A DNA stretch of 64,000 nucleotides from Bacteroidales bacterium. GTDB lineage: Bacteria > Bacteroidota > Bacteroidia > Bacteroidales > P3. A program made the position numbers and the translations under genes. The stretch's first letter is position 1; every line of letters starts with the position of its first letter. The notes under the pieces were generated by a model. The model saw nothing but the letters and a program-made list of their open reading frames with translations, had not been told where the DNA came from and searched no databases. Shown here piece after piece: positions 3,731 through 38,103 of this stretch. The DNA is taken from NCBI GenBank assembly GCA_017480785.1, contig JAFURZ010000013.1, forward strand, positions 248,001 through 312,000. The letters run 5' to 3'.

Positions 3731-3789
3731 ATCAGTATGTTTTGATAGAACAACGGCAATATGCATTTTTTATTGTGCGGCAGGAGAGG

Positions 3790-3866
3790 GAACGCAAATT
3801 GCCACGAATTATTCATAAATGTATTTATGGTAAATTCGTGACAATAAAACAAGATGATTTGCGTTC
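3790..3866. repeat. Nested inverted repeats between divergent genes
   Basis: Three pairs of arms are nested. GAACGCAAAT (3790-3799) pairs with ATTTGCGTTC (3857-3866), CACGAATT (from 3803) with AATTCGTG (to 3840), and CATAAAT (3814-3820) with ATTTATG (3823-3829). The block fills the gap between the divergent DUF1295 and yraN genes and ends 3 bp before the first possible yraN start. It could be a miniature element, a double operator or a cruciform-prone site. Confidence 0.7.
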
Positions 3867-3869
3867 TTT

Positions 3870-14107: not shown

Positions 14108-14121
14108 TGTTTTTTTTAAAA

Positions 14122-14157
14122 TAACGCGATTTTTCTGGTTTTCGTATGTGTGTTTGT
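14122..14157 (-). pseudogene. Remnant tail of the ATPase-associated small gene
   Basis: Thirty-one of 36 bases match the end of the 106-aa gene (7637-7672). The minus-strand reading HKHTYENQKNRVI parallels YKRTYEKQNNHVI. It sits 15 bp before the second ATPase gene, in the same relative position as the intact gene before the first ATPase. Confidence 0.65.
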
Positions 14158-14185
14158 GATATTAATTCATAGTAATTTGTTGCCT

Positions 14186-14851: not shown

Positions 14852-14888
14852 TCTGTAATAAATTACGTGATTCCATTGGATTCAAACA

Positions 14889-15920: not shown

Positions 15921-15936
15921 GCTTTCTATAATATAG

Positions 15937-15968
15937 AAGCTGGGTAGCCCTCTCGGGCTGCCCAGCTT
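15937..15968 (-). terminator. Probable terminator of nifJ
   Basis: A 14-bp stem is formed by AAGCTGGGTAGCCC (15937-15950) and GGGCTGCCCAGCTT (15955-15968), with one non-Watson-Crick position and a TCTC loop, 11 bp past the nifJ stop. The following minus-strand tract (CTATATTATAG) is only weakly T-rich, so read-through into the downstream accessory genes is possible. Confidence 0.65.
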
Positions 15969-15979
15969 GATTTGAGATA

Positions 15980-19574: not shown

Positions 19575-20495
19575 TTAAGTATTGGTCGGAGGAATAGCTG
19601 TTGCTAAAATATAATTGCCACCAATGTTATTTTCAACAATCTTATCTAGATTCGTCTTGTCAGCAAGAATCATACAGCAATGGTGTATGCCCAAAACCAA
19701 ATCTTGTATATCTTGCCTACTTTCAAGGTCTTCTACTGCGAGTCCTACTTTACGGCATTCTTCTCTATCAATATGGCGATTATGGGCTTTTGTATCGTCG
19801 TTTTTTGCGAATTTCTTTTTAATATCTTTTACTTTTGCAGCTGATAACCCTTTGCCGGATAGTATTTTGTCGGTCAACTTATCCACAAGCTCATCTGCTT
19901 GCTGGCAACGTGTTAGGAATGTGGGTGTAAGTTTTGAGAACATAACTTGCCACAATCCAAGGCATGCAGGATTATTGGTGACTTCTTTAACTGCGTATTT
20001 GTATTCTCTCAGCATAGACTGACAGGCAACTCCTCCCAATTGAGGATCAAAGGGTCCAATACAGGACTGTCTTCCCATAAGAATTGATTTACAGGAAACA
20101 GCAATCATTGAACCTGCAGACATGGCCATCTGAGGAACTATAGCCCTTATGTCATCACCATAGTAAGATTTAAGATAGGAGATGATTTGTTCTGTTGCAC
20201 CAATCTCGCCTCCTGGTGTGTGAAGGATAAGATCAAGACCTTTCTTTTTATCCGTTCCTTTAACAGTCTCCATTAGAGCATTTACATCCTTGTCATTGAT
20301 GTCAGTATTGATAGAATTTTTCCCATGATTGAGAAATGCTGAGAAATAGAGAATTGTGTTTCTTCCTGTTAAGGTGGATAAGTCATGAATCATCTGGCTT
20401 TTTCTTTGTAAGATATGATTATATCCCGATTTCTCACTTCCACCAGTGATGACTGCTTGATTGTATTCGTTATTTAATTCACTCCAACTGTTCAT
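19575..20495 (-). CDS. SDH_sah-family Clp-fold serine proteinase
   Basis: The 306-residue protein matches the serine dehydrogenase proteinase family (SppA/ClpP-crotonase fold). DLILHTPGGEIGATEQIISY carries the first oxyanion turn and MAMSAGSMIAVSCKSILMG the nucleophilic Ser; FDPQLGG is also conserved. There is no membrane helix, so it is probably cytoplasmic. Its start overlaps the stop of a 67-aa gene by 4 bp, making a two-gene unit. The unit is AT-rich and bracketed by the two copies of the nifJ leader repeat, so it looks like an inserted cassette. Substrate unknown. Confidence 0.8.
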   Translation of the reverse strand: MNSWSELNNEYNQAVITGGSEKSGYNHILQRKSQMIHDLSTLTGRNTILYFSAFLNHGKNSINTDINDKDVNALMETVKGTDKKKGLDLILHTPGGEIGATEQIISYLKSYYGDDIRAIVPQMAMSAGSMIAVSCKSILMGRQSCIGPFDPQLGGVACQSMLREYKYAVKEVTNNPACLGLWQVMFSKLTPTFLTRCQQADELVDKLTDKILSGKGLSAAKVKDIKKKFAKNDDTKAHNRHIDREECRKVGLAVEDLESRQDIQDLVLGIHHCCMILADKTNLDKIVENNIGGNYILATAIPPTNT

Positions 20496-20695
20496 AATCT
20501 TGCAGAAAAGGTTTCGTTAGTTTCAGCAATACTCCGTTTTTGATCTTGATATAAGGAGAATTGCACATAATGTCCATCACGCATTTCCCAAGAGACATCT
20601 TGAAATGCTTGTGAAGAGTTCTCATCAAAACCCCTCATGAATTTTTTGAAAGATTCGCCAATGTTCATTGGCTCATTAATGATTCGGGTATTCAT
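20492..20695 (-). CDS. Small protein coupled to the serine proteinase
   Basis: The 67-residue protein, MNTRIINEPMNIGESFKKFM onward, overlaps the protease gene by 4 bp (ATGA arrangement), which implies translational coupling. It has no membrane segment and I do not recognise a family. Its size and coupling fit an inhibitor, adaptor or substrate of the protease, but this is inference from arrangement only. Confidence 0.6.
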   Translation of the reverse strand: MNTRIINEPMNIGESFKKFMRGFDENSSQAFQDVSWEMRDGHYVQFSLYQDQKRSIAETNETFSARL

Positions 20696-20796
20696 ATGTA
20701 TAAAGTATAAAATTTGTTATAATAACGATACTACTTTGTTTTTATTTCAATAGAGAGTGATATTGGTTTTTACATACCATAAACTATAATTCTTGT

Positions 20797-20833
20797 GCCG
20801 TAATTGCTTAAACGTTTAATGATTAATTATTTT
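20797..20833. repeat. nifJ leader repeat, copy 2
   Basis: This second copy of the 37-bp nifJ start/leader sequence has two mismatches and contains TTAAACGTTTAA at 20808-20819. It begins 7 bp beyond the stop of the 342-aa gene (20840), mirroring copy 1, which lies 14 bp beyond the stop of the protease gene. Confidence 0.85.
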
Positions 20834-20839
20834 GGTGAA

Positions 20840-21868
20840 TTATTCAAGATAAGAATCATATCTTTCCAAAAAATATTTGTATGTTTTTTTTGAAGACTCT
20901 ATCAAAAAGTTATAATTCTCACATAATTGTATTAAATATTCTTCGTAGTCGCCTTCGTATATCTTCCATCTATCTACATTTATAAATTGCTCGAGTGCTC
21001 GGCTAAAAATCATATTCTTATAGTGTGTATTTTCACATCTTTCAATCACATCAGATTTATAGTCCCATATCATTCTTTCGGTAAGGAATCTACGATGTTC
21101 ATTTTTGTTATATTTTTCTTTTGCGCACCTCTTTAATTCATTTTCTTCATCAATATATGGTCTTTTAGGAGGATTTATACTCATTGAATGGGCTTCACAA
21201 AAGCCGGAGTCTTTATATATATTCTCGGAATGATGAGGGAATAATCTGTTAATAAATGGTTCGCCAATTTCTTTATATACTTTGTCTACATAGTAATAGT
21301 CATCTTTGCCTGGTTTGCAAATAAACGTTTCTTCGTTTTCTATTGTAAAAGAATCAATAATTCTATCTATGTCTAATTCGTTCAAATATTGATCGATGGC
21401 ACATAATTTCTGGTTTATGTCAAAGGTGTCTTTAAGATACAATTTGTTTTTAAAGAAAGCATTGATTATTGTTTGCTCTTGATTGGAATAGTTCCATCCA
21501 GCATAGGTGGTTCCTTCATTTTGATAATAAACAATATATTGATATCCAAAGCCATTATTCACGATAAAGCGTTTGCTTTTCTTAAGTGTTTCTTTGGGAA
21601 TACATAATCCACCATTATCATTGTATAATGTATAATCATAATCATCCCCTGCATTACATCGGATATTCTCAAAATAATCAAATTCATTTAAAAGAACAAC
21701 AAAATCACTTTTGTCGTTCTTCTTTGGGACAAAAAAAACATAATCATCGGGTTTAACCTTTGGTAAAATCGCATTCTCCATTAGCTGGAAATAACCACTA
21801 TCGTGAAGGATTACTTTAAAATCCTCTCGACCTAAAACAACTCCAAATGACAATGGCTGAACTTTCAT
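20840..21868 (-). CDS. Unknown 342-aa accessory protein
   Basis: This AT-rich gene encodes a soluble protein starting MKVQPLSFGVVLGREDFKVI and rich in Tyr, Asp, Glu and Asn. It has no signal peptide or membrane helix, and no motif I can assign. Its stop abuts the second nifJ leader repeat, and it is co-oriented with the protease unit and ORF6N. I read it as another cassette stacked at the nifJ 5' side. A defence or toxin-type role is possible but not shown. Confidence 0.6.
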   Translation of the reverse strand: MKVQPLSFGVVLGREDFKVILHDSGYFQLMENAILPKVKPDDYVFFVPKKNDKSDFVVLLNEFDYFENIRCNAGDDYDYTLYNDNGGLCIPKETLKKSKRFIVNNGFGYQYIVYYQNEGTTYAGWNYSNQEQTIINAFFKNKLYLKDTFDINQKLCAIDQYLNELDIDRIIDSFTIENEETFICKPGKDDYYYVDKVYKEIGEPFINRLFPHHSENIYKDSGFCEAHSMSINPPKRPYIDEENELKRCAKEKYNKNEHRRFLTERMIWDYKSDVIERCENTHYKNMIFSRALEQFINVDRWKIYEGDYEEYLIQLCENYNFLIESSKKTYKYFLERYDSYLE

Positions 21869-21901
21869 CTGATTAGTATTACTTATTATTTCAGCAGTTT
21901 C

Positions 21902-21978
21902 CTATTCTTTACTTTGTTTATACCCAATCTTTTTCCGTGGTTTGGCGGGTTGCTCGCGCAGTTGGTCGAAGGCGTTAT
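21902..21978 (-). pseudogene. Out-of-frame C-terminal tail of the ORF6N gene
   Basis: A different frame from the ORF6N gene reads DRAHNAFDQLREQPAKPRKK then IGYKQSKE and a stop at 21902-21904. Phage-type ORF6N proteins typically end in a proline-rich PxKPRxKIG(F/Y)K tail, so this is the native C-terminus. It is displaced by a frameshift in an A-rich stretch near 21985. Confidence 0.65.
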
Positions 21979-21986
21979 GGGCACGG

Positions 21987-22556
21987 TCATTTCTTGTTGT
22001 CTTTCTTCACTCGTTTGACGGTATGTGTGATTTTGCCAATAATAAAGTTTATCTCCAACGATGATTCCGTCTCGGTGGTCTCGAGGTCGGGCATCACGAT
22101 GTCGGTCAGCACCTCTCCGAAGTGTTGCATCTTGCTCTGTTGTACCTCCTTGTCAGTCTCCTTGTGCAGTTCTACAAGTTCGCGCTTCAGGCTGCGGACT
22201 TTTGCGAAGGTCTCGATGATGGCGAAGGTCACTGCCGTGGCCCGTTCGCTGTGCAAGATGGTGGCAAGCATATAAAGCCCCTTCTCGGTGAACACCTTGG
22301 TGGTCGAGCGACTCTTGACCGACACCTTTGTGGTCGATATTTTCGACCGCAAACTCTGCAACTCACTCTTACTGAGCTCGAACATATAATCCTTCGGGAA
22401 CTTGTCCCGATTGTTCCGCACCGCCTCATTTACGCGTCGCGTCTCCACGCCGTACAACTCCGCCACATCAGCATCGGCAATCACTTGCTGCTTGCGTATG
22501 GTAGCAATCTTGTTTTCTACCTCAATGTAGGGAATCAATGCATTTAATTTGCTCAT
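21987..22556 (-). CDS. ORF6N/KilA-N-type DNA-binding protein, frameshifted at its end
   Basis: Residues 8-100 carry the ORF6N domain: EVENKIATIRKQQVIADADV, YGVETRRVNEAVRNNRDKFP, YMFELSK, then FTEKGLYMLATILHSERA. These domains come from phage and plasmid regulators. A helical stretch follows (RSLKRELVELHKETDKEVQQ). The frame ends at KKDNKK, but the family's usual proline-rich IGYK tail continues in another frame at 21902-21978, so the current protein is slightly truncated. A second, unrelated tail lies upstream at 22675-22800. It is probably of mobile-element origin. Confidence 0.8.
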   Translation of the reverse strand: MSKLNALIPYIEVENKIATIRKQQVIADADVAELYGVETRRVNEAVRNNRDKFPKDYMFELSKSELQSLRSKISTTKVSVKSRSTTKVFTEKGLYMLATILHSERATAVTFAIIETFAKVRSLKRELVELHKETDKEVQQSKMQHFGEVLTDIVMPDLETTETESSLEINFIIGKITHTVKRVKKDNKK

Positions 22557-26172: not shown

Positions 26173-26204
26173 TTTGGAGAATTGCAGTTTTTTTAGTACC
26201 TTTG
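26173..26204 (+). promoter_or_regulatory. Promoter of the JAB/E2/E1/Clp operon
   Basis: TTTG (26173-26176), a 20-bp spacer and TACCTTTG (26197-26204) lie 52 bp before the JAB gene start. It is the only clear promoter seen for the six tightly packed genes that follow. Confidence 0.8.
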
Positions 26205-26256: not shown

Positions 26257-27243
26257 ATGCTAGGATTCGGCCCCCGACCCAACAAGACCTCGCCCACCTC
26301 ACCGACAGGATGGGAGACGGCAGCAGACATAGCCATCATCTACCGCAGCGAGCTGGATTACATCTCGCGTTGCGTGCTGGACTATCCCGACATCGAGACG
26401 GGAGGCAACTTGTTCGGCTACTGGAACAACGCAGGCCAACCCGTGGTGCTCTACGCCATCGGTCCTGGCGACAACGCCACCCACCAGCCTGCATTCTTCA
26501 TTCAGGACATGGGCTACTTCGGGAAGATATACACCGAGTTGAACCACCGCTTCCTCCTGTCGCATATCGGCGAGTGGCACTCGCATCACCAGTTGGGTTT
26601 GGCGCGTCCAAGCGGTCACGATGCCTCGACGGCCTACCGCACCGTGCAGGCCACCCACCGAAGAAGCCTGCTGCTGTGCATCGCCAACTGGCGTGATGGG
26701 CGCACCACGGTAAACCCATACAACTTCCACCTGCACATGCCCACGGGTTATGTCGATGCCCAGTGGCACATCGTGGAGCAGGAGAGCCCGTTCAGGCCTG
26801 TGGCCGACGCCGCGCTGGACGGCCTGCTGCGGCATCCACTGACCGCCGAGGCGGCACACGGTCCACTGCGTACCCTCGGACAGCCCGAGAAGCGAGCGCC
26901 CGGCTTGGCTTTGGCCGACAACCACTGGCTGCGTCAGGAGGGAGGCATCGGAATGATGCGCAAGATGGTGGCCACAGTGGAGCAGCTGGCCGGAGGACGG
27001 AAGGCCACCTTCCAGGCCGACCCGGCAGAGGGGCTCATACGTATCCTGCCGGAGGGTGCTGACTGGAGCATCGAGTTAGCGGCCGACTTCCCACAATCGG
27101 CTCCACAGCTGCTGTTTTCGGGGCAGCCCTTCGCCACGCAGCCCGCATGGCAGGCACCTCGCGGATTCGACGACACCCTGGCCGCCTTCAACCGCTGGAT
27201 TACCGAAGCATTGACAAGTCAAATCAATACACAACAACCATGA
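26257..27243 (+). CDS. JAB/JAMM-type metallopeptidase (predicted deconjugase)
   Basis: The 328-residue protein has a JAMM zinc-peptidase core: Glu47 in DIETGGNLFGYW, then GEWHSHHQLGLARPSGHD with His108, His110, Ser119 and Asp122. The His-Ser spacing is one residue longer than in the classic eukaryotic motif, as I recall for bacterial ThiF/E2-linked JAB proteins. Such enzymes cut ubiquitin-like proteins from targets or from precursors. The C-terminal about 150 residues are a separate alpha/beta region (IRILPEGADWSIELAADFPQ) that may recognise a partner. The stop overlaps the E2-like start by ATGA, which ties it to the conjugation genes. Confidence 0.88.
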   Translation: MLGFGPRPNKTSPTSPTGWETAADIAIIYRSELDYISRCVLDYPDIETGGNLFGYWNNAGQPVVLYAIGPGDNATHQPAFFIQDMGYFGKIYTELNHRFLLSHIGEWHSHHQLGLARPSGHDASTAYRTVQATHRRSLLLCIANWRDGRTTVNPYNFHLHMPTGYVDAQWHIVEQESPFRPVADAALDGLLRHPLTAEAAHGPLRTLGQPEKRAPGLALADNHWLRQEGGIGMMRKMVATVEQLAGGRKATFQADPAEGLIRILPEGADWSIELAADFPQSAPQLLFSGQPFATQPAWQAPRGFDDTLAAFNRWITEALTSQINTQQP

Positions 27244-27686
27244 TATCACAAGACCGTTACCAAGCCGAGGATACCGTATTGGCTCACTACATTCCGCGCA
27301 CATCCTACCGGTTTGAGAACATCTACTCCAACCGGCCTGTACTGAAAATCACCTATGTGACACGCAACAGAGCCAGTTACGTGCTCTACTTCGACCTTGC
27401 CGGCTTCCCGAACAACAAGCCGAAGGTCTACGTCATGAAGATGCTGCACGACAAATGGGGTAATCCCATGAGCGGCGCGTCGGGAGCCAACCACACCCTG
27501 CCGTCATGGAACGGATGGACCCAGCTGTGCCACTACTCTGACGAACACTGGAGACCCAACGTCACCCTGATGCACGTGTATATCAAGTGTGCAGCTTGGC
27601 TGGAGATATACCAGGCTCACCTGCGCACTGGTCGCAATATCGGGGACATACTGGCACACCAACAGAGTCATGTGTCAGAATACTAA
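27240..27686 (+). CDS. E2/UBC-like protein
   Basis: I start at the ATG of the ATGA overlap (27240, MISQDRYQAED), giving 148 residues; a longer frame only reads into the JAB gene. The order resembles the E2 fold seen in bacterial ThiF/JAB loci: strands at 35-70, then TQLCHYSDEHWRPNVTL (94-110), then CAAWLEIYQAHLRTGRNI (117-134) with the WLxxYxxxLxTG pattern. Cys97 and Cys117 are the candidate acceptor residues; I cannot tell which, if either, is catalytic. It would take an activated modifier from the E1 two genes downstream. Confidence 0.7.
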   Translation: MISQDRYQAEDTVLAHYIPRTSYRFENIYSNRPVLKITYVTRNRASYVLYFDLAGFPNNKPKVYVMKMLHDKWGNPMSGASGANHTLPSWNGWTQLCHYSDEHWRPNVTLMHVYIKCAAWLEIYQAHLRTGRNIGDILAHQQSHVSEY

Positions 27687-27713
27687 GTCTAACAATCTTA
27701 AAAAATAAACAAA

Positions 27714-27884
27714 ATGGGAAACGAGAACTTTGCGGGCTTGGATGAACTCGAACAAGCCCTTCAGAACGGTGGAACGAAAGGCGACATCTATTGGCAGGAC
27801 GGGCAACTGACCACCCAGAAGAACCCCTTCGAAGAGTCGCTGACTGCAACCGAGCCTCTGAAACACGGCTGGGCAAACCGCTAG
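27714..27884 (+). CDS. 56-aa protein between E2 and E1 genes
   Basis: ATG at 27714-27716 and TAG at 27882-27884 give MGNENFAGLDELEQALQNGG at the N-terminus, KGDIYWQDGQLTTQKNPFEE in the middle and KHGWANR at the end. It lies 27 bp after the E2-like gene and 4 bp before the E1 gene, so it is almost certainly translated in the operon. It is shorter than a normal beta-grasp ubiquitin (about 70-76 residues) and lacks a terminal Gly-Gly; an internal Gly-Gly is at residues 19-20. It could be a minimal modifier, a substrate or an adaptor. No family recognised. Confidence 0.6.
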   Translation: MGNENFAGLDELEQALQNGGTKGDIYWQDGQLTTQKNPFEESLTATEPLKHGWANR

Positions 27885-27888
27885 AGAC

Positions 27889-29157
27889 ATGGAACGCATC
27901 TACTACATTGACGGAAGCGAAGTAAATACGTTTCTGTCGGGGGCGACTGTTGCTGCCCCGGGAGTGGCTTATGAATGGGAAGGCGAAGGCGTGGTGCACC
28001 TGCACCTCCAGCCACTGAAGCATGCCTATGGCCGGTGCCATAGCGTGCTTTTCACTCGCGCCCCCCGTCCGGCAAGCGACGCCGACACAGACTACACAGT
28101 GTGTGTAGCCGAGGACGGCAGTTGCACCGTGTGGACGGCTGGTGCCGCCGACGGCGTGCAAGCCATGACCATACCCACGAAAGAGAACCTCTACTCACGC
28201 AACCACGGCATACTGGAACTGGGCATACTAGAGAATAAGCGCGTGATGATAGTAGGCCTCGGCAGCTTTGGCTCACAGATTGCCATCGAGCTGGCCAAGG
28301 CCGGCGTCGGCAGCTTTGCCCTGATGGATTTCGACCGCATTGAGTTGCACAACCTGGCCCGCCACACGGCTACCACGCGCGACCTTGGACGTCTCAAGAC
28401 CGACGTCATCCGCGAAGCGCTAGAGGGCAAGAATCCTTACGCCAACGTTGACCTCTTCCCCATCGACATCAACCAGCACCTTGAGACGCTGCTGGTCGAA
28501 TGCCGCAAGGCCGACCTGGTCATCTGCGCCACCGACAACAACCTTTCGCGCATCAACATCAGCCAAGCACTCATCGGCACACAGACTCCAGGCATCTTCG
28601 GCAGCGCCCTAACGCGTGCCGAGGGTGGCTGTGTGTTCCACTATCAGCCCGGCGGGCCGTGCTACAACTGCTTTCTTGGCAACGGACTCATCTCCGGTGC
28701 CCGTGAGGAGGTGAGCAGTGTGGAAGCCGGCCGACGCAGCGGCCAGATAGCCGCCTACACCTCGCCCGAGGATGCCAACGCCGTGGTGCAGGTGGGCTTG
28801 AGCGCCGACATAGAGCCCATCTGCAACATGGTGGTGAAGCTGGCCTTGGTCGAGCTTTCGCGCGGTGCCGAGTCGGGCATCAGCTCACTGGAGAAAGAGT
28901 TGGTGTTTCCGGCCTACCTATGGGTGAACCGACGCGAACGGCACTTCCTCCGCTTTGCCTCGTTTGCCAATCCTGGCAACCGTCCCACCATCATGCGCTG
29001 GTACGGCATCAGTATGCAGAAGGATGAGAACTGCGTACTGTGTGGCAAAAAACACAAATTCACGGTGGAACAAGACCTGCTGGACGACATGGGGGTAACC
29101 ATGGAAGACCTTCAGGCACAGAACGCCGACCTTGACCAAACCCTTGCCGAGCTATGA
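27889..29157 (+). CDS. E1-like ThiF/MoeB-family adenylyltransferase
   Basis: The 422-residue protein has a ThiF/E1 core from about residue 115. VMIVGLGSFGSQIAIELAKAG carries the ATP-binding GxGxxG at 123-128, MDFDRIELHNLARH carries the Asp and the Asn/Arg pair, and VICATDN follows. Zinc Cys pairs are at C258/C261 (PCYNC) and C382/C385 (CVLC). The first about 95 residues form a separate beta-rich domain of unknown type. E1 enzymes adenylate the C-terminus of a ubiquitin-like protein and pass it on as a thioester. The AAA+ gene starts 9 bp later. Confidence 0.9.
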   Translation: MERIYYIDGSEVNTFLSGATVAAPGVAYEWEGEGVVHLHLQPLKHAYGRCHSVLFTRAPRPASDADTDYTVCVAEDGSCTVWTAGAADGVQAMTIPTKENLYSRNHGILELGILENKRVMIVGLGSFGSQIAIELAKAGVGSFALMDFDRIELHNLARHTATTRDLGRLKTDVIREALEGKNPYANVDLFPIDINQHLETLLVECRKADLVICATDNNLSRINISQALIGTQTPGIFGSALTRAEGGCVFHYQPGGPCYNCFLGNGLISGAREEVSSVEAGRRSGQIAAYTSPEDANAVVQVGLSADIEPICNMVVKLALVELSRGAESGISSLEKELVFPAYLWVNRRERHFLRFASFANPGNRPTIMRWYGISMQKDENCVLCGKKHKFTVEQDLLDDMGVTMEDLQAQNADLDQTLAEL

Positions 29158-29166
29158 CCATCCGCC

Positions 29167-31383
29167 ATGTCTAATACCCTATCGCTCAACGAAGACAGCA
29201 GGCACTTGATGGAGTGCGCCACGGCCATCTGCCGTCGCTTCCGCTTGGTCTGTATTGAACCCGCAGTATTGTTCATGGCCATCCAACAATGCCATGGCAA
29301 CGAGTTGTCACATCTGCTCAGCGGGCTGGGCATCAGCCCCGACCCATTTTACTCGCGCGTGGCCCAAAGCATGAACCGTCTGGAGCGAAGTAACACGCCT
29401 GAGGGTGCCATAAAAGTATCCCCTGCAGTGCTCAAAGCGCTCCAGCTGGCTCCTCAAGTAGGCCGGCAACTGCACGACGCCACACATCCGCACGCGGGAC
29501 TGGCAGTGGCGTTGCTCACTATTCCGAGTCCGATCCAGCAACTGGCCAGCCAAGAAGGCTTCTCACTCGACCGGCTACGACAAGAAGAGACGCCGGAGCC
29601 CTCCCCCAGCCCGTCACGTCAATCCCCCAGCCGTACAAGCCGGCGGTGCCCGACCATCGAGCGTCACTGCGTGGACCTGATTGAGCAGGCACGACAGGGG
29701 AAGATACACCCCGCCATCGGACGTGACAAGGAGATACTCAACGTGCTCCAGATACTCTCGCTAATGACCAAGAACAACGCAGTGCTGGTCGGCGAGCCAG
29801 GCACTGGCAAGACGGCCGTCGCCGAGGGGCTGGCTTTCCGGATGCTGAACAACCAGGTACCGGAAGGAATGGAGGACATGCGGCTTTTCCAACTCGACAG
29901 CGAGGCCATCAAGAGCGAAGAGGTCATGCGCCATATTATTGAAGAGGCCAAGAGCGACCCGAAGATAGTGCTCTTCATCGACGAAATACACACTCTCATA
30001 GGCAACTGCTCGTGTGCCAATAACGAAGTGGCCAACCTACTCAAACCAGAGATGGCACGCGGAGCCATCAAGATTCTCGGCGCAACCACCCTCGACGAAT
30101 ACACCAAGCACATCGAGAAAGACAAAGCCCTTGAGCGACGATTCCAAAAGGTGCTGGTCGATGAGCCCGACATAGAGACCTCTATCAAGATACTCGCCGG
30201 AATCAAACGCCGCTTTGAACAACACCACCAAGTGACCATCCCCGAGGATGTGGTAAGTTCTGCTGTGAAGCTGAGCCACCGCTACATCACCGACCGCCGT
30301 CTGCCCGACAAAGCCATCGACCTGATGGACGAGGCCGCCTCGAACGCACGCATGCGACACCACGACAGCGTGACGGAGAACGACATCTTGACTGCTGTCA
30401 CACGCCGCACGGGGGTGCCACTGCAGAACCTTAGCAGTGACGAGACCGAGCGTCTGCTACACATCGAGGAGCACCTCCACCACTCCATCATAGGGCAGAG
30501 CAAGGCCGTCAGCGCCGTAGCGGCAGCCATCCGACGCAGCCGCATGGGGTTGGGCAACCCTAACCGGCCCGTGGGCTCGTTCCTCTTCCTAGGCACCTCT
30601 GGTGTCGGCAAGACAGAGCTCTGCAAGGCCTTGGCTGAATTCCTCTTCGACTCGCGCGACAGGATAGTCCGCATCGACATGAGCGAATACCAGCAGGAGC
30701 ACTCCGTGGCCCGACTCTTCGGCGCACCGCCGGGCTATGTCGGCTACGATCAAGGAGGGCAGCTCACTGAAGCCGTCCGCCGCAAACCCTACAGCATCGT
30801 GCTCTTCGACGAGATGGAGAAAGCCCACCCCAAGGTCTATGAAACCCTCCTCCAGATGCTCGACGACGGCCGTATGACCGACGGGCAAGGTCGCACTGTC
30901 GACTTCCGCAACACCATCATCGTGATGACCTCCAACATGGGCCAGGACATCATCGCCCGCAACCTCATCGGTCACACCGACGACGCCACCGTGCAACGCA
31001 CCTCTGAGGCCGTCGTAGGCCTGCTGAAACAACGCGTGGCCCCCGAGTTCATCAACCGCATCGACAATATCGTCATGTTCCTCCCTCTCACACAAGAAGA
31101 GGTCCGTCAGATAGCCCGTCTGCAACTGGATGGCACCGTGAGCCAGTTCCAGACACAAGGAATCACCCTCACCTACACTCCTCAGGTAGTCGAATACATC
31201 GCAGCACACGGCTACGTGCCCGAATACGGGGCACGACCTATCGGACGGACCATCAACAAGCATCTCGTCGACCCCTTGACCGAGGCCATCTACGCTTCGC
31301 ACATCAACCGCAGCATGCCTATCCAAGCCGATGTGGCAGACGGGAACATCTTCTTCCACAACTCTAATAACCAGCAAGCATGA
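29167..31383 (+). CDS. Two-domain Clp/Hsp100 AAA+ unfoldase
   Basis: The 738-residue protein has a degenerate Clp N-domain (about 1-135), a Pro/Ser/Arg-rich linker, then AAA module 1 with Walker A GEPGTGKT (209-216) and Walker B VLFIDEIHTLIG. Module 2 has Walker A GTSGVGKT (476-483), Walker B IVLFDEMEKAHP and sensor-2 region YGARPIGRTINKHL. The long coiled coil of ClpB/ClpC is missing, so it is ClpA-like. At the ClpA IGL position there is an Ile-Gly-His (601-603), so docking on ClpP is uncertain. Its place in a JAB/E2/E1 operon suggests it unfolds modified proteins. It overlaps the next gene by ATGA. Confidence 0.92.
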   Translation: MSNTLSLNEDSRHLMECATAICRRFRLVCIEPAVLFMAIQQCHGNELSHLLSGLGISPDPFYSRVAQSMNRLERSNTPEGAIKVSPAVLKALQLAPQVGRQLHDATHPHAGLAVALLTIPSPIQQLASQEGFSLDRLRQEETPEPSPSPSRQSPSRTSRRCPTIERHCVDLIEQARQGKIHPAIGRDKEILNVLQILSLMTKNNAVLVGEPGTGKTAVAEGLAFRMLNNQVPEGMEDMRLFQLDSEAIKSEEVMRHIIEEAKSDPKIVLFIDEIHTLIGNCSCANNEVANLLKPEMARGAIKILGATTLDEYTKHIEKDKALERRFQKVLVDEPDIETSIKILAGIKRRFEQHHQVTIPEDVVSSAVKLSHRYITDRRLPDKAIDLMDEAASNARMRHHDSVTENDILTAVTRRTGVPLQNLSSDETERLLHIEEHLHHSIIGQSKAVSAVAAAIRRSRMGLGNPNRPVGSFLFLGTSGVGKTELCKALAEFLFDSRDRIVRIDMSEYQQEHSVARLFGAPPGYVGYDQGGQLTEAVRRKPYSIVLFDEMEKAHPKVYETLLQMLDDGRMTDGQGRTVDFRNTIIVMTSNMGQDIIARNLIGHTDDATVQRTSEAVVGLLKQRVAPEFINRIDNIVMFLPLTQEEVRQIARLQLDGTVSQFQTQGITLTYTPQVVEYIAAHGYVPEYGARPIGRTINKHLVDPLTEAIYASHINRSMPIQADVADGNIFFHNSNNQQA

Positions 31384-32129
31384 AAATCGGCGGCTACGAC
31401 TTCAACCCACGCGACTTGACGCTGAACCTACAGCAGAACACGGGCAGAGGCATGCCTCCTCCCATCAGACCTCGCACCACCTCCTCTTCCAGCCCCACTT
31501 ATTCCAGTCCTACCTATTATTCCTACTCCCTTTGGGAAAGGATTAACGACGGGGTGGAAAGCATCGGGGAATGGCTACAGGATACCGGCGCATGGCTGAT
31601 ACCCCTCATCGTCGCGGGCATCCCCGCCGTGGGCGGTATCATCTGGGCCATTGTGGCGGTGATATCGGAATTTGCCAAACATGGATTCTGGAATGGATTG
31701 GTGGCTTTGATTGTTGCTGCTTTTCTCGGTACTATTGCATACTTCGTACTGGCTTTTGCAGCCTATATAGTGTCTAAAGTGGTCTACCTGCTGGGATACA
31801 TCTTCACCAACGCCTGGACGCTACTCATCACCCTAGCCCTGGCGGGCGGCATCTGGCTCTATGCAGCATTGAAGAACACCGACCATACCCCCAAGCACAA
31901 ATACCAACCCCGCACCGAGCAGACCACCCCCGCGGTCACCTACTACCGCTGCACCGCCAACGTCCTCAACGTGCGTGCCGCGGCCACGACGCGCTCTCAG
32001 GTGATTGGCACCATCCAGAAAGGCGAAGTCGTCGGTGTCATCGGCATCGAAGGCAACTTCGCCAAAATCAACTGGCACTCGCAGACGGGCTACGTAAGCC
32101 GCGACTACATAGCGCGGACGGGGCAATAG
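31380..32129 (+). CDS. Membrane protein with a C-terminal bacterial SH3 domain
   Basis: The 249-residue protein has a Pro/Ser/Thr-rich N-terminus, three or four membrane helices (about residues 70-170) and a linker. A bacterial SH3 domain follows, with ANVLNVRAAATTRSQVIGTI and then WHSQTGYVSRDYIARTGQ at the end. SH3_3 domains often bind cell-wall peptides or proteins. It overlaps the AAA+ gene by 4 bp and so belongs to the operon. It could place the system at the membrane. It ends 2 bp from the convergent DUF4954 gene. Confidence 0.8.
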   Translation: MKIGGYDFNPRDLTLNLQQNTGRGMPPPIRPRTTSSSSPTYSSPTYYSYSLWERINDGVESIGEWLQDTGAWLIPLIVAGIPAVGGIIWAIVAVISEFAKHGFWNGLVALIVAAFLGTIAYFVLAFAAYIVSKVVYLLGYIFTNAWTLLITLALAGGIWLYAALKNTDHTPKHKYQPRTEQTTPAVTYYRCTANVLNVRAAATTRSQVIGTIQKGEVVGVIGIEGNFAKINWHSQTGYVSRDYIARTGQ

Positions 32130-33930: not shown

Positions 33931-34209
33931 ATTAGGTCGTGCACGACCTATTTCCGGATGCCCCGATTGAACACCGAAAAAAGACCGGTTTTTGTCCGAC
34001 TGCAGTCGGACCATCCTCGGAGTTGAGTCGGAGTTGTTACGGAGATGTTACGGAGATGTCCGTTCCGAAACCCGTCATTGTGCTCTGTTTCACTGTGTTT
34101 TAGGTTCGTTTTAGGGGCTAATACGCCCAGTGGGCACCCTTTTGGTACCTTGAGGAGGGGGTGCGGCGAAGGGGTGTCGACAGGCAGTTAGGTCGTGCAC
34201 GATGTAATT
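33931..34209. mobile_element. MITE-like element, copy 2
   Basis: The left end holds the perfect 16-bp palindrome AGGTCGTGCACGACCT (33934-33949); the right end is AGTTAGGTCGTGCACGATGT (34186-34205). Inside, TCCGACTGCAGTCGGA (33995-34010) is another perfect palindrome, followed by GGAGTTG-type repeats to about 34060. The layout and size (about 280 bp) match copy 3. No gene lies between 33845 and 34288. Confidence 0.65.
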
Positions 34210-34224
34210 TTTATATGTTAAAAA

Positions 34225-34256
34225 TTTGGTGGTTCCGGTTTTTCTTCGTATCTTTG
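34225..34256 (+). promoter_or_regulatory. Promoter of secreted-protein module 1
   Basis: TTTG (34225-34228), a 20-bp spacer and TATCTTTG (34249-34256). An in-frame ATG at 34226 lies inside this promoter and cannot be the start; the ATG at 34289 is used instead. The same promoter with the same flanks precedes module 2. Confidence 0.82.
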
Positions 34257-34288
34257 CACCGAAATTGACAACAGAAAAACCTACGCCA

Positions 34289-35758
34289 ATGAAAACTATC
34301 GCTTTACATTTACCAAAGGTGCTTTTTGCGCTGGTATTGCTCGCTCTGGCGGCACCGGCCGGGGGTCAGAACAGCCTCGTGAGGCAGTATCCCGTGCTGT
34401 CGGGCGACACGGTGCTCGTCCGCACGGACAACTCCACGTTTGTCACCTGCTGCAACACGACCGGCTGGCGCAGCTGCTTCGTGGTGGACGACGGCACCAC
34501 CTGCCGCCGGTTCTTCACCACCCTGGCGCCCTCGGGCATCCATATCACCGACTCGGGCTACGTGGTGTATGACATGCAGCTGGTGAATGGTGTGTGCTGG
34601 TTTGCGGGCTACAAGTGGTTCGATACGGGGTTGCCTTTTTACACCCTTGACGGCCAAGCCTACAACCTCGTCACCTACAAGGCCGTTATCGGCCGTTTCA
34701 ATACGGCCGACGTGCTGAACGGCAGCGGGAACTACGGCATCATTGAGGTTTCGGGTCTGCACCACATCGAGCGCCTGGCCGTCATCGGAAGCAACGTCAC
34801 CGCCATCGGGGTTAAGCCCAATGGGACGCGCCAGCTGGTGGAACTCTACAAGATTCCTTTTTTCAACAAATACATAATGACGACAGAAGAATCATCCCTG
34901 CCGCAGGAAGTATTTATGGATGTCGTCGCAGCGGGGAATAAAATGGTCTTGTTGTCGCGCTTTTCAACACCTGGCAGCACAGAACTAACCAATTACTTTG
35001 GGCTACGCTATGGCACGGCAGGATTATTGTTCGGAAATACAACCCTTCATCGCCACGATGTAAGCCCGGCCTATAACTCATACCTCACGTTTCCATCGGT
35101 ACACCCTATGCGACTTGCTGCCACCAATAATGGCAACGGGGTAGTGGTGGCTTATGTTGCCCAGAATGATGGACTACCCTCTGGCAATCCATGGCTCTAC
35201 AAGTTCGTTCTCTTCCACATTGCCGCCGAGAACGATACTTACACTGACGTAATTATTAACACCGATGGAGAGAAATACACAGATATCGCGGACTTGCGAT
35301 TCAACAAACCTATAACCACAAACACCCACATGTCACTACTCCTGCAAGCTGGACCCTCTGACGTCTATCTTAGATTCCCTCCGCTTAATTTCTCTGGTTC
35401 AACTACCGATGTTATTCTTTACACCACATCTCCATATATCCAATCGGTCGCGCCCTACCAGACAGCAGCGACAGGTTTGGAACTTGCCGCTGCCGGTCAC
35501 CACGTCCTGACAAACACACCATACACAGAGGAGATTCTGGAGGAAGATATCCTAAGCCTCACTGGTACTTCCTACTCAAACAATTGCCTACAAACAAGTG
35601 AAGGAATGTTGTCGCGGACGTCTGTTAACAGCAGAATCGGCGATTTAACCTGTTCGCTTGACACGATATCTGTCAAACGCTCTGTCCAATTTGTAAATCA
35701 CTCATATACATCATCCATCATTTCCAAGACAACGACTTGCATAGATGGAATCCACTAA
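34289..35758 (+). CDS. Secreted protein A1 of the duplicated module
   Basis: MKTIALHLPKVLFALVLLAL followed by AAPAGGQ is a signal peptide; the mature protein is about 460 residues. The N-terminal 190 residues are nearly identical to A2 (38104-39570), with conserved Cys pairs (FVTCCNTTGWRSCF). After RQLVEL the two copies fall to modest similarity. The pattern of short strands suggests a beta-propeller-like surface or exported protein, but no family is recognised. It has no T9SS sorting domain of its own; the next gene does. Confidence 0.75.
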   Translation: MKTIALHLPKVLFALVLLALAAPAGGQNSLVRQYPVLSGDTVLVRTDNSTFVTCCNTTGWRSCFVVDDGTTCRRFFTTLAPSGIHITDSGYVVYDMQLVNGVCWFAGYKWFDTGLPFYTLDGQAYNLVTYKAVIGRFNTADVLNGSGNYGIIEVSGLHHIERLAVIGSNVTAIGVKPNGTRQLVELYKIPFFNKYIMTTEESSLPQEVFMDVVAAGNKMVLLSRFSTPGSTELTNYFGLRYGTAGLLFGNTTLHRHDVSPAYNSYLTFPSVHPMRLAATNNGNGVVVAYVAQNDGLPSGNPWLYKFVLFHIAAENDTYTDVIINTDGEKYTDIADLRFNKPITTNTHMSLLLQAGPSDVYLRFPPLNFSGSTTDVILYTTSPYIQSVAPYQTAATGLELAAAGHHVLTNTPYTEEILEEDILSLTGTSYSNNCLQTSEGMLSRTSVNSRIGDLTCSLDTISVKRSVQFVNHSYTSSIISKTTTCIDGIH

Positions 35759-35769
35759 ACGGATTAGTT

Positions 35770-37101
35770 ATGAAGAAACGGATTATCATATCATTATGGT
35801 GTGTACTGGCCTCATGTGGCACACAGGCACAGTTGGTGTACACTCCTGGCGATACGCTGGAGGGTCGCTGCAACTATTATTATTACAATCCCCTAGATGA
35901 GTTGTGCCCTTGGTTCCACCAATACAGTTACGCTACCTATCATGCGTCGGGGCATGAAGACGACGCTTTTACCAAGCTTGTTCGTATCGAACACACCGAC
36001 CGGCAAATGGCAGTGAAAGGTATTGCCGCGATGGTGACCCGTATCGAAGACTATTTGGCCGATAATTCATGGATATATTTCAATAGCCCATCACCAGGAA
36101 AGAAGGCCGAGTATGTGTACCTTTGTTCCGATGACTCCCTCAGACTTACCATGATAGATTCCGCCCGTTGGGACACATTGACTCCACGACTATTGAAACT
36201 CCCAAAATCTCCAGACACCCTGACAGACAGCAATACTGACAACTTCCTCTACTGCCATTTGTTTGAGGCATATTTCGAGGAGTCGCATTTGGTCGACTCT
36301 AGGTTTCTTATGGCAGGCTCATACTATAGCAATTCCGATGCAAACCCGAAGACCTACATACCAACCAAGTACTTCGTTGTTGCAGAAGACTACGACATCT
36401 GCAACGAAGGTTGCCATGGGGACACCACAGGCTATCTGTACTCCTATCTGGATTCGGAATACCTACAACGACTCATTGACGAGGCCTATGCCTACTACGA
36501 CTCCCTTGGAGAACTGGACCGCTACAAAGACTCTATCGACTATGCTATTTCCTTAATCTGGCGCAGCAGGCTTGACAGAGCCAAAACAGGTCACCTCGGC
36601 CCCTTCTTCGCCATTGTGGACTTCTACCAGCTCGATGCGACGGTGGCCGACAGCTGCACCGGGATGGGATGGGCACTGGGCAGCGGCCGATACCCCGACC
36701 GCTCGCTCGACACCATCATGGCCCGTCCCCGGCCGGGCTATTGCTTCGTGCAGTGGGACGACGGCAACACCGACAACCCCCGCATCGTCGACCTTACCCA
36801 GGACACACTCTTCACCGCTATCTTCGGCACCTGCCCGGCAGAGGGTATCCCGTCCCCCACAGAGTCTTCACTGCCCTTCAGCGTACAGCCCAACCCGACC
36901 ACCGGAACTGTCGCCGTCGGCACTCCGTCGGACGGCAGCTACCAGCTGACACTCTACGACATGGCCGGACGGCTGCTGATGCAGACCTCGTTCACGGGCA
37001 CGGCCACCACCCTCGACCTCAGCCACATGGCTGCCGGCAGCTACCAGTTGATGCTCCGCTCGGCTACCGTCTCGGGCATCAAAGTCATCGTCAAACAATA
37101 A
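35770..37101 (+). CDS. Secreted protein B1 with a T9SS C-terminal sorting domain
   Basis: The start is ATG 35770 (MKKRIIISLWCVLASCGTQA), the first that gives a signal peptide; the open frame extends upstream into gene A1. The last 70 residues (SVQPNPTTGTVAVGTPSDG, LYDMAGRLLMQTSF, LDLSHMAAGSYQLML, IKVIVKQ) are a type A Por/T9SS sorting domain, so the protein should be exported across the outer membrane and attached to the surface. The domain before it (YCFVQWDDGNTDNPRIVDLT) resembles InlB B-repeat-like or bacterial Ig-like units. The C-terminal half is almost identical to B2. Confidence 0.82.
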   Translation: MKKRIIISLWCVLASCGTQAQLVYTPGDTLEGRCNYYYYNPLDELCPWFHQYSYATYHASGHEDDAFTKLVRIEHTDRQMAVKGIAAMVTRIEDYLADNSWIYFNSPSPGKKAEYVYLCSDDSLRLTMIDSARWDTLTPRLLKLPKSPDTLTDSNTDNFLYCHLFEAYFEESHLVDSRFLMAGSYYSNSDANPKTYIPTKYFVVAEDYDICNEGCHGDTTGYLYSYLDSEYLQRLIDEAYAYYDSLGELDRYKDSIDYAISLIWRSRLDRAKTGHLGPFFAIVDFYQLDATVADSCTGMGWALGSGRYPDRSLDTIMARPRPGYCFVQWDDGNTDNPRIVDLTQDTLFTAIFGTCPAEGIPSPTESSLPFSVQPNPTTGTVAVGTPSDGSYQLTLYDMAGRLLMQTSFTGTATTLDLSHMAAGSYQLMLRSATVSGIKVIVKQ

Positions 37102-37104
37102 CAA

Positions 37105-37974
37105 ATGGAAGCCATGAGAAAGATACTGTCACTATTGCTGCTCGTCCTGCCGCTGTCGGCCGCCTTCGCTCAGCCGGCATACAGCAACCACGACACCGTC
37201 ACCGGGACGCCCTCGCATTACTACGTCCCGTTCTGGTACACCAATTGTCCCTCGTTCCGAGCCGATAGTGTCAACTTCTTCGATAGCGAATTAACCAATG
37301 TCAACTATCTTTTTTGGGGGGATAGCTTGCGTCTGAATCATGTCACTTTACGCGAATTCAATACCAACACACCCATGGAGATTTTCGGCATAGTAGCGTT
37401 GGTGGATATCACTCCCCACTTTCCAAGTCCGATGGCAAACCCTACGGCCGGACGGGCCCCGGAATATCTCAAGCTCCTGCAAGGCACCGACTCTATCACC
37501 GATGGCTACTTTGACAGCGATTCCACACAACCCATCCCGCCAAGCATGTTACCCCTCCACATGACGATGCTCGACTCGCTCCGATGGGACACCGTCACAC
37601 CCCACATTCTACGGCTGCCCAAGAAGCATAACGCTGTCGACGACACCGACTTCTTCTACTGCTACGCCTACGAGTGCTGGTTTCCGCAACCCGTCACCGT
37701 CGATTCGGTGTTCTACGTGCTCGGAACTTACCGAAGCAACTGTGTCCCGCTTTCCGGGAGATTGTCCAATTACCCCACTTCCTACTTCTATATTGGGGAA
37801 GACTTTGACATCAACTGCGACAAGTGTATCCAACGTGATTATTCGCGTGTTTTTTCATGTCCGTTTTTTCCAAATGAACATGCTTCTTTTTGGCATTGGG
37901 ATAATCTGAACAAGAGCATCTTTGGCCTCTTCTACCCGATTATTGGCTTTCCAAATGCCTGGAAAAAAGAATAG
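37105..37974 (+). CDS. Secreted protein C1 of the duplicated module
   Basis: The start is 37105 or 37114 (MRKILSLLLLVLPLSAAFAQ), a clear signal peptide. The mature 265 residues share RWDTVTPHILRLPK and DTDFFYCYAYECWFPQPVTV with C2, and a related phrase with protein B (SARWDTLTPRLLKLPK). B and C are therefore partly homologous. C has no sorting domain. It follows B1 by 3 bp in an A-B-C operon. Function unknown. Confidence 0.72.
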   Translation: MEAMRKILSLLLLVLPLSAAFAQPAYSNHDTVTGTPSHYYVPFWYTNCPSFRADSVNFFDSELTNVNYLFWGDSLRLNHVTLREFNTNTPMEIFGIVALVDITPHFPSPMANPTAGRAPEYLKLLQGTDSITDGYFDSDSTQPIPPSMLPLHMTMLDSLRWDTVTPHILRLPKKHNAVDDTDFFYCYAYECWFPQPVTVDSVFYVLGTYRSNCVPLSGRLSNYPTSYFYIGEDFDINCDKCIQRDYSRVFSCPFFPNEHASFWHWDNLNKSIFGLFYPIIGFPNAWKKE

Positions 37975-37976
37975 GC

Positions 37977-38024
37977 GGGGGGGGGGGGGCGGCGACGGGC
38001 AGTTAGGTCGTGCGCGATGTAATT
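37977..38024. repeat. G13 run and a solo MITE end before module 2
   Basis: A run of 13 G (37977-37989) begins just after the C1 stop codon. It is followed by AGTTAGGTCGTGCGCGATGT (38001-38020), the right-end motif of the MITE-like family. The equivalent place before module 1 has only short G runs. The promoter starts 50 bp after the G run. Confidence 0.75.
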
Positions 38025-38039
38025 TTTATATGTTAAAAA

Positions 38040-38071
38040 TTTGGTGGTTCCGGTTTTTCTTCGTATCTTTG
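38040..38071 (+). promoter_or_regulatory. Promoter of secreted-protein module 2
   Basis: TTTG (38040-38043), 20 bp and TATCTTTG (38064-38071). The sequence from the MITE end through this promoter is practically identical to that before module 1, so the duplication includes the promoter. Confidence 0.8.
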
Positions 38072-38103
38072 CACTGAAATTGACGACAAAACAACCTATG
38101 CCT

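What the first reader, a model, noticed from the sequence alone, without database searches (positions are those of the whole stretch)
26257..32129. Six-gene operon joining a ubiquitin-like JAB/E2/E1 set to a Clp-type AAA+ unfoldase and a membrane SH3 protein
One promoter (26173-26204) precedes six genes with gaps of 27 bp or less and three ATGA overlaps. The sequence shows a JAMM motif (Glu47, His108, His110, Asp122), a ThiF/E1 core (GLGSFG, two CxxC pairs), an E2-like pattern (LCxY...WLxxYxxxLxTG) and a two-module ClpA-like ATPase without a coiled-coil domain. Prokaryotic E1/E2/JAB loci are known (the ubiquitin-antecedent families of Iyer, Burroughs and Aravind; CBASS Cap2/Cap3; Bil and Bub systems). 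A dedicated Clp unfoldase plus SH3 membrane protein in the same operon does not match any named system I know. Inference: conjugation marks proteins that the AAA+ ring then unfolds, at the membrane.
Basis: partly seen in the sequence, partly recalled or inferred. Interest (0 to 1): 0.88.

Follow-up and report, generated by a model that had tools for sequence, protein, structure and literature searches.

The report
Ubiquitin-type cascade with tiny unusual tag
A Bacteroidales-type bacterium carries an operon that looks like a small ubiquitin system whose tag is probably a 56-residue protein unlike ubiquitin, coupled in this lineage to a protein-unfolding ring and a membrane protein; if right, it widens what can serve as a protein tag.

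Summary
The six-gene operon is real: promoter, JAMM, E2 and E1 residues and the two-ring Clp ATPase are as described, except that there are two ATGA overlaps, not three, and the ATPase derives from ClpB. Seventeen loci (window included) keep the order JAB-E2-E1. AAA+ was found in 5 of 17 and the SH3 protein in 2 of 17: lineage add-ons, not the core. Elsewhere the place holds Septu-like, CBASS, small membrane, Ig-like or Sel1 proteins.

A counterpart (56-69 aa, once a tandem) lies between E2 and E1 in 16 of 17 loci. Its tail is conserved up to G[FW]A, GFF or PYY, then mostly breaks off into unrelated 1-5-residue ends, as in ubiquitin precursors. One genome has a head-to-tail tandem ending twice in VKDGFA. 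No profile links it to the beta-grasp fold. I think it is the modifier: JAB matures and removes it, E1/E2 attach it. Its motif recurs in downstream proteins (9 of 38 ORFs against 0 of 115 elsewhere in those loci).

The parts
26173..26204 (+). Bacteroidetes-type promoter TTTG-N-TAnnTTTG
   Evidence: exact pattern match; 11 in window against 0.67 expected
26257..27243 (+). JAB/JAMM metallopeptidase, 328 aa; about 26947-27111 may be an E2/RWD-like C-terminal domain (weak)
   Evidence: Prok-JAB matched in 7 of 7 aligned members, window E 0.00055 and below Pfam's cut-off; E47/H108/H110/D122 invariant; profile positions 231-285 hit the VPS37A chain at E 0.5 only
27240..27686 (+). E2-like protein, 148 aa (start at 27240), candidate catalytic Cys97 with His85
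27714..27884 (+). 56-aa small protein, proposed modifier precursor
   Evidence: counterpart in the E2-E1 gap of 16 of 17 loci; dN/dS 0.14
27849..27875 (+). C-terminal tail TEPLKHGWA of the modifier
   Evidence: aligned with the TDMTKDGFA-type tails; T46, G52 and A54 invariant in the 8 rows; identical in L034
27876..27881 (+). proposed removable two-residue end (NR)
   Evidence: same NR in L034; other groups diverge in length and sequence after the corresponding point
27889..29157 (+). E1-like (ThiF fold) activating enzyme, 422 aa
   Evidence: PF00899 E 1e-32; family alignment A6
29167..31383 (+). ClpB-derived two-ring AAA+ ATPase, 738 aa, without M-domain and without the D1 pore loop
31380..32129 (+). 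membrane protein with three hydrophobic segments and C-terminal SH3_3, 249 aa
24757..26166 (+). flank: rmuC (not part of the system)
   Evidence: PF02646 E 8e-79; also upstream of the operon in L034
32132..33844 (-). flank: DUF4954 protein (not part of the system)
   Evidence: PF16314; also downstream of the operon in L034

Best explanation
The operon is a bacterial ubiquitin-type conjugation cassette (JAB - E2 - modifier - E1) with a lineage-specific effector module (ClpB-derived AAA+ ring plus membrane SH3 protein). Proposed mechanism: (1) the 56-aa protein is made as a precursor; JAB cuts after the conserved G-W-A, removing the last two residues. (2) E1 adenylates the exposed C-terminal Ala. 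(3) The modifier passes to Cys97 of the E2 and from there to a target; JAB also reverses this. (4) The AAA+ ring, with the membrane protein, acts on modified or docked targets, extracting or remodelling them; in the window protein only the D2 ring keeps its pore loop. Shown by sequence: enzymes and catalytic residues, presence of the small protein in the gap and the abrupt end of its conserved tail, a tandem precursor in one genome, exchange of the downstream module, ClpB kinship. Inferred: conjugation itself, the cleavage point, the target, and what the ring does.
For: JAB-E2-E1 order in 17 of 17 loci, with a small ORF between E2 and E1 in 16; hosts are Bacteroidota except L055, a Bradyrhizobium plasmid without the small ORF. 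Tails: in five species of one genus the last 12 core residues KVGTTIGTKPYY are identical, then VK, NDKE, LK, AN, VK; VVVDQIYKDGFF then NTFII or M; T-[DE]-M-T-x-x-G-F-A then nothing, F or L. Tandem: L056 encodes 142 residues with two near-identical units, each ending VKDGFA, followed by KNEG... and MVK, like a polyubiquitin precursor. A C-terminal Gly or Ala on a non-ubiquitin protein is a known E1/E2 substrate in CBASS (PMC10097602, passages read). In L055 a cyclase ending FGA lies downstream, and the E1 starts with a stretch resembling helix plus hairpin of the small protein (the resemblance is my reading). E2 signature. The five operon AAA+ proteins are one clade, 100/100 support.
Against: No experiment and no structure: the prediction tool was off. 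No non-zinc Cys is invariant across the 12 E1s; C312 is invariant only in the eight Bacteroidales proteins, so a thioester on E1 is unproven. In 4 of 16 loci (L035, L038-L040) there is no extra tail to remove. The L056 repeats are nearly identical and may be a recent duplication without function. The window's small protein shares only 13-26% with the six rows other than L034, so its alignment to them rests on few residues, and window and L034 have the same NR end. The sets in which the end varies between close relatives are three groups only. Five of the 16 small proteins are from one genus. Weak, unrelated Pfam hits to the small proteins exist (RibLong in 2 of 12, best E 0.011). AAA+ was not found in 12 of 17 loci.
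Confidence: 0.57

Rival explanations
1. The small protein is an adaptor or regulator of the E1/E2 (or of the effectors), not the modifier; the conjugated protein is something else, such as an effector or a host protein.
For: Its central hairpin motif recurs in downstream proteins (9 of 38 non-overlapping ORFs against 0 of 115 in the same loci, 0 of 237 in other loci and 0 of 53 in the window) and, by my reading, at the N-terminus of the L055 E1, as expected of a docking motif. Most of the small protein varies strongly.
Against: Within groups the C-terminal tail is strongly conserved and stops abruptly with variable ends; one genome has a head-to-tail tandem.
Confidence: 0.22
2. A peptide-maturation (MccB-like) pathway: the E1 adenylates the C-terminus of a small peptide to make a modified, perhaps secreted, peptide; JAB processes it.
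For: MccB is the next solved relative of the E1 profile after MoeB and ThiF (1.4e-19); MccB adenylates a short peptide (recalled).
Against: A dedicated E2 with invariant His/Cys and a JAB isopeptidase fit transfer to a protein better; the six window genes include no exporter family; the small protein is far longer than the MccB heptapeptide (recalled).
Confidence: 0.08
3. One reading: a six-gene unit in which E1/E2/JAB and the Clp ring plus SH3 membrane protein are obligate partners for membrane-linked unfolding of marked proteins.
For: AAA+ is beside or near the core in 5 of the 8 loci of the closest E1 clade, and those AAA+ proteins are one clade. Genes are tightly packed in window and L034.
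Against: AAA+ not found in 12 of 17 loci, SH3 protein not found in 15 of 17; other genes take the place.
Confidence: 0.1
4. The true modifier is an ordinary ubiquitin-like protein encoded elsewhere in the genome.
For: Bil and other systems use beta-grasp modifiers (PMC11354881, passages).
Against: The cassette occurs in distant hosts with its own small ORF. No search for a remote Ubl gene was made.
Confidence: 0.03

Closest known systems
CBASS type II Cap2/Cap3
   Same: E1, E2 and JAB-type activities acting on a non-ubiquitin protein whose C-terminus is Gly or Ala; reversible (PMC10097602, passages).
   Different: There E1 and E2 are domains of Cap2 and the substrate is the CD-NTase; here they are separate genes and the likely substrate is a 56-69-aa protein. 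One relative, L055, does sit upstream of CD-NTase and Cap4 genes.
Bil (BilABCD)
   Same: Four-function set: modifier, E2, JAB, E1; JAB matures the modifier (PMC11354881, passages).
   Different: BilA has two ubiquitin-like domains and a C-terminal Gly; here no beta-grasp signal and a G[FW]A-type end.
Bub
   Same: Bacterial ubiquitination-like operon family (PMC13373217 and PMC12687455, passages).
   Different: BubCD is only a weak match of the E1 profile (9.5e-5 against MoeB 3.3e-26). The defining Bub papers were not held.
vWA-MoxR-FtsH ternary systems with a Ubl-conjugation set (Burroughs et al. 2020)
   Same: A conflict system that joins E1, E2, JAB to AAA+ ATPases; ClpN repeats are mentioned in variants (PMC7159879, passages).
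   Different: There the set includes a RING E3 and a Ubl fused to E2 and EAD1, with vWA, MoxR and FtsH; none of these is among the window genes.
Iyer et al. 2006 operon types 6a-6e
   Same: E1, E2, JAB genes together; 6d has separate E1, E2, JAB and a small protein, with a Bacteroides listed (PMC1779556, section 14 and passages).
   Different: 6d: small protein is beta-grasp with conserved C-terminal Gly, E2 lacks the usual His, JAB has an N-terminal domain. Here: no Gly end, a His 12 residues before the Cys, and a JAB with a C-terminal extension.
Pup / pupylation
   Same: Small tag and an AAA+ ring (analogy; PMC5286830 and PMC3511204, abstract starts in the listing).
   Different: Pup is attached by other enzymes, not E1/E2 (listing); here a ThiF-type E1 and an E2. 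Whether the small protein is disordered is unknown.
ClpB/Hsp104
   Same: AAA+ protein nearest to ClpB; Walker motifs of both rings and the D2 pore loop kept.
   Different: M-domain lost in window and L034, shortened in L035; D1 pore loop lost in window and L034 and its Tyr replaced in the other three.

Membership tests
E2 (UBC) superfamily | UBC/RWD fold signal and active-site Cys | tested here: met
   P57, P61, H85, C97 invariant in 13. 29 of 33 PDB hits up to E 5 are E2, UEV or RWD-type chains (two FANCL chains counted on recall), best E 0.008, most covering only the N-terminal part before the Cys. The most-matched PADLOC E2 model hits 7 of 13 members; best E of any 6.5e-6; the window protein itself only 0.012. 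Pfam RWD and UQ_con: 3 of 13 each, not the window protein. Fold not predicted.
E1/ThiF superfamily | Adenylation core GxGxxG and zinc CxxC pairs | tested here: met
   PF00899 1e-32
E1/ThiF superfamily | Conserved catalytic Cys for a thioester | tested here: inconclusive
   C312 conserved in the eight Bacteroidales proteins, not in the wider set
JAB/JAMM peptidases | E ... HxH ... S x x D | tested here: met
   a strict WHSHHxLGL pattern was found in 16 of 17 loci by script, not in L051, where the JAB was found by tblastn. One residue more than the usual spacing between HxH and D (usual spacing recalled).
CBASS type II | CD-NTase gene with E1-E2 fusion Cap2 | tested here: not met
   No CD-NTase hit among the six operon genes; E1 and E2 separate
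Bil | beta-grasp modifier with C-terminal Gly | tested here: not met
   No Pfam or PDB beta-grasp hit for the small protein; no Gly end. Sequence test only
Bub | E1/JAB architecture and modifier of Bub | tested here: inconclusive
   BubCD a weak E1-profile hit only; defining papers not held
Iyer type 6d | Ubl with conserved C-terminal Gly, E2 without the usual His, JAB with N-terminal domain | tested here: not met
   against PMC1779556 section 14
Pup system | PafA-type ligase | not tested
   None among the operon genes; genome not searched for it
ClpB | ClpB sequence kinship, two AAA+ rings, M-domain | tested here: inconclusive
   Two rings; the operon clade branches among ClpB sequences, but the branch that unites it with some ClpB has only 88/89 support; M-domain absent in window: a ClpB derivative, not a ClpB
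Unfoldase partnering ClpP | IG[FL]-type ClpP loop in D2 | tested here: not met
   window has NLIGH at that place; loop consensus recalled

The most novel reading that the evidence does not exclude
A complete ubiquitin-type cascade (E1, E2, JAB) whose modifier is not ubiquitin-like at all but a 56-69-residue Pup-sized protein, matured from precursors (tandem 'poly-modifier' in one genome), with a shared docking motif on swappable effectors; in this lineage it feeds a dedicated ClpB-derived ring at the membrane.
Probability: 0.4. Interest if true: 0.88.

Novelty: new variant of a known kind. Interest (0 to 1): 0.74.

Why it matters
Where the passages I read name a modifier for a bacterial E1/E2/JAB system, it is a beta-grasp protein or, in CBASS, the cyclase itself (types 6a-6c of Iyer et al. 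have none named there). A small non-beta-grasp modifier with precursor tails and a tandem form would separate the chemistry of ubiquitination from the ubiquitin fold, and would link it to Pup-like tags and Hsp100 machines. The exchangeable downstream genes (Septu-like, CBASS, membrane proteins) make it a candidate regulatory core for several immune or stress effectors. The central claim can be tested with one expression experiment.

Tried and rejected
Rejected: that the operon AAA+ replaces the cell's ClpB/ClpC. The own genome shows no other ClpB/C, but it is 92% complete, and the near relative G115 has a ClpC and an N-terminal ClpB piece on a small contig. Not supported: viral carriage. Viral-contig scans with the E1 and E2 profiles confirmed nothing (58 and 25 candidate stretches), and the window E2 had no match in phages at E 1e-5. 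In plasmids, E2 queries from L055 and L057 matched only two Bradyrhizobium records; the E1 query matched 480 records, of which I saw 20 rows, none covering 80%; the window E2 was not run there. In the family of G396, 5 of 9 genomes (one genus) hold the cassette, and in all five stretches fetched the same two neighbouring genes lie beside it (psd- and pssA-like, names recalled), so there it looks inherited in place. Rejected: ClpP partnership (no loop). Not settled: JAB C-terminal RWD-like domain (E 0.5). Wrong turn: the first AAA+ tree took an antisense ORF for L110; redone. The E1 tree has long branches (L055, L056) and does not settle whether AAA+ was gained once and lost. The motif was written after seeing examples, so its counts are in-sample. 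The first count used all ORFs of 40 aa or more in six frames, most of them not genes (12 of 163 downstream against 0 of 1194); the second used non-overlapping ORFs of 90 aa or more. In both, same-strand ORFs upstream of E1 within 4.5 kb were in neither class, 15 loci were tested (not window or L055), the L067 E1 position was estimated, and five of the loci are one genus. The rmuC/DUF4954 pair was not tested as an empty site in other species. Literature: nine searches; the listings shown, capped at 8-20 titles, held no description of this gene set. Burroughs 2011 and 2012, Chambers 2024, Gong 2025 and Ye 2026 were not held, and Burroughs 2015 was not opened (one search failed), so prior description is not excluded.
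Full report
OBSERVATION. Comparison with the nearest relative (L034, 0.80-0.91 aa identity) gives dN/dS of 0.09-0.19 for all six genes, including 0.14 for the 56-aa ORF.

RELATIVES. In the host's own family 190 genomes were searched with the E1; 179 gave some match, but by best E-value only the own genome and G115 stand out (4e-291, 2e-262; next 1e-15), the rest being partial matches in the ThiF core. A scan of the GTDB contig collection gave seven loci, L034-L040, 51-90% identical in E1; L034 and the G115 copy look like the same locus (same identities). An E2 profile found 5 of 393 genomes in the order (own, G396, G541, G216, and a short match with a stop in G257 that I dropped), 3 of 395 in the phylum (own, G676, G863), 1 of 98 and 1 of 301 in two further groups, in each case only the centre genome already known, and 5 of 9 in the family of G396. 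These sets overlap. One plasmid relative came from Bradyrhizobium. With the window these make 17 loci: window, L034-L040, L049, L050, L051, L055, L056, L057, L066, L067, L068; L049, L050 and L066-L068 are one genus.

CORE. All 17 have JAB, E2 and E1 in that order (16 relatives checked); 16 have a small ORF between E2 and E1. The E2 keeps His85 and Cys97, 12 residues apart, in 13 of 13 aligned rows. Of 33 PDB hits of its profile up to E 5, 29 are E2, UEV or RWD-type chains, but individually weak (best 0.008) and mostly over the part before the Cys. PADLOC's E2 models match it (best 6.5e-6 among members, 0.012 for the window protein), Pfam RWD and UQ_con weakly (3 of 13 each). The E1 profile hits MoeB, ThiF and MccB best, Cap2 and BubCD more weakly. 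Only the zinc cysteines are invariant in 12 E1s; C312 is invariant in the eight Bacteroidales proteins.

THE SMALL PROTEIN. Apart from the L056 tandem it is 56-69 aa. It has no convincing family: Pfam gives weak unrelated hits only (best 0.011), PDB none better than 0.13. Along the chain I read an N-terminal helix-like stretch, a hairpin-like motif such as LVFNPxTGEFE, a linker, and a conserved C-terminal stretch that ends abruptly. In five species of one genus the last 12 core residues are identical and are followed by VK, NDKE, LK, AN and VK; L051 and L057 share VVVDQIYKDGFF and then have NTFII and M; in the Bacteroidales group the tail ends G-F-A followed by nothing (4 loci), F or L; window and L034 both end G-W-A-N-R. 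L056 encodes 142 residues with two near-identical units, each ending VKDGFA, then KNEG... and MVK, behind two E2 genes. This is the pattern of ubiquitin, SUMO and polyubiquitin precursors (recalled), and JAB is the obvious processing enzyme. CBASS gives the precedent for a C-terminal Gly or Ala on a non-ubiquitin substrate (PMC10097602; passages). The Bradyrhizobium locus, which lacks the small ORF, has a CD-NTase (annotated as hypothetical) that ends FGA, followed by Cap4 and a TIR protein. The order of elements does not match beta-grasp, but no structure was predicted, so 'not ubiquitin-fold' is a sequence judgement.

THE DOWNSTREAM MODULE. Window and L034: AAA+ and TM-SH3 (SH3_3 in L034 at 2.7e-15). 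L035, L036, L037: ClpB-like AAA+ (in L036 about 3.8 kb after E1, with other genes between); in L035 and L036 small membrane proteins without SH3. L049, L050, L066-L068: a 124-125-aa membrane protein (SH3 not found in the two scanned, L050 and L066). L051: a protein with one hydrophobic segment, then the contig ends. L056: a protein I read as Ig-like (no Pfam hit). L057: proteins matching PtuA (2.2e-66) and, weakly, PtuB (4.5e-6; HNH_I-A better at 3.8e-8). L055: CBASS genes and a TIR protein. L038-L040: Sel1-repeat proteins. By tblastn no AAA+ relative of the window protein was found in the other 12 loci; the L039 and L051 contigs end about 1 kb after E1. The small protein's motif recurs near the N-terminus of downstream proteins: 9 of 38 non-overlapping ORFs of 90 aa or more within 4.5 kb, against 0 of 115 elsewhere in those loci, 0 of 237 in other loci and 0 of 53 in the window; it was seen in 10 of 15 loci, five of them one genus. 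The motif was written after seeing examples. The window's membrane protein does not match it; I read a degenerate form, YDFNPRDLTLNL, at its start.

THE AAA+ RING. The five operon AAA+ proteins form one clade (100/100) apart from ClpC; the branch that joins them to some ClpB has 88/89 support (28 rows). L036 and L037 keep the M-domain, L035 has part of it, window and L034 have lost it. Window and L034 also lack eight residues including the D1 pore loop; in L035-L037 the D1 pore-loop Tyr is replaced. The D2 pore loop GYVG is kept; no ClpP-binding tripeptide is seen (loop names recalled). So it is a specialised Hsp100, probably pulling with D2 only (inference).

MECHANISM. The best reading is a conjugation core with its own small modifier and exchangeable effectors. 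Presence beside Septu-like and CBASS genes argues for defence; the stable place in 5 of 9 genomes of one genus argues for a lasting, possibly physiological, role. I do not claim a function beyond reversible modification that feeds an effector.

STATUS OF CLAIMS. Shown by sequence: gene order, catalytic residues, ClpB kinship, tail pattern, tandem, effector exchange, selection. Inferred: cleavage point, adenylation of the small protein, E2 transfer, target, role of the ring and the membrane protein. Not excluded: earlier description in papers that were not held. On re-checking I lowered the main confidence slightly (0.58 to 0.57), because the direct E2 evidence for the window protein is weaker than first written.

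Noticed in passing
window 34171-38990: Repeated stretch: 300 nt at 34171-34470 recur at 37986-38285 with 94% identity, including the same promoter (34225, 38040), with further matching pieces in the following gene (spacing about 3815).
   Followed up: partly
L056 4161-4595 and about 3694-4107: Two adjacent E2 genes in the locus with the tandem small protein; both keep the His...Cys signature.
   Followed up: partly
L055 11464-12912: Bradyrhizobium E1 carries an N-terminal extension (KSKLVYDKTRRTIVAVSEE) that I read as resembling helix plus hairpin of the small protein; its cassette sits upstream of CBASS genes whose cyclase is annotated as hypothetical and looks cut at its start.
   Followed up: partly
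L038 1-9820: The cassette lies downstream of genes for a Ser/Thr kinase with WG repeats, an FtsK-like ATPase and an FtsA-like protein; a further reading frame before the small ORF holds one clear (YNERTGDF) and one degenerate copy of the motif.
   Followed up: partly
L036 11373-14239: Between E1 and AAA+ lie two short genes that start like the ClpB N-domain and one that looks like a radical-SAM protein (my reading).
   Followed up: no
L037 13903-20316: Long downstream series: motif proteins, DUF4407 protein and two dynamin-like GTPases.
   Followed up: partly
L038 11222-11356: 44-aa ORF 13 nt after E1 beginning MGWEYNPKTGDFDGGG, a minimal motif protein.
   Followed up: no
window 1-64000: The TTTG-N-TAnnTTTG promoter pattern is strongly over-represented (11 against 0.67 expected), useful for marking transcription starts in this genome.
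   Followed up: no
window 14001-16000 and 20001-22000: AT-rich stretches (GC 0.34 and 0.33 where many neighbours are 0.5-0.6), possible acquired islands.
   Followed up: no
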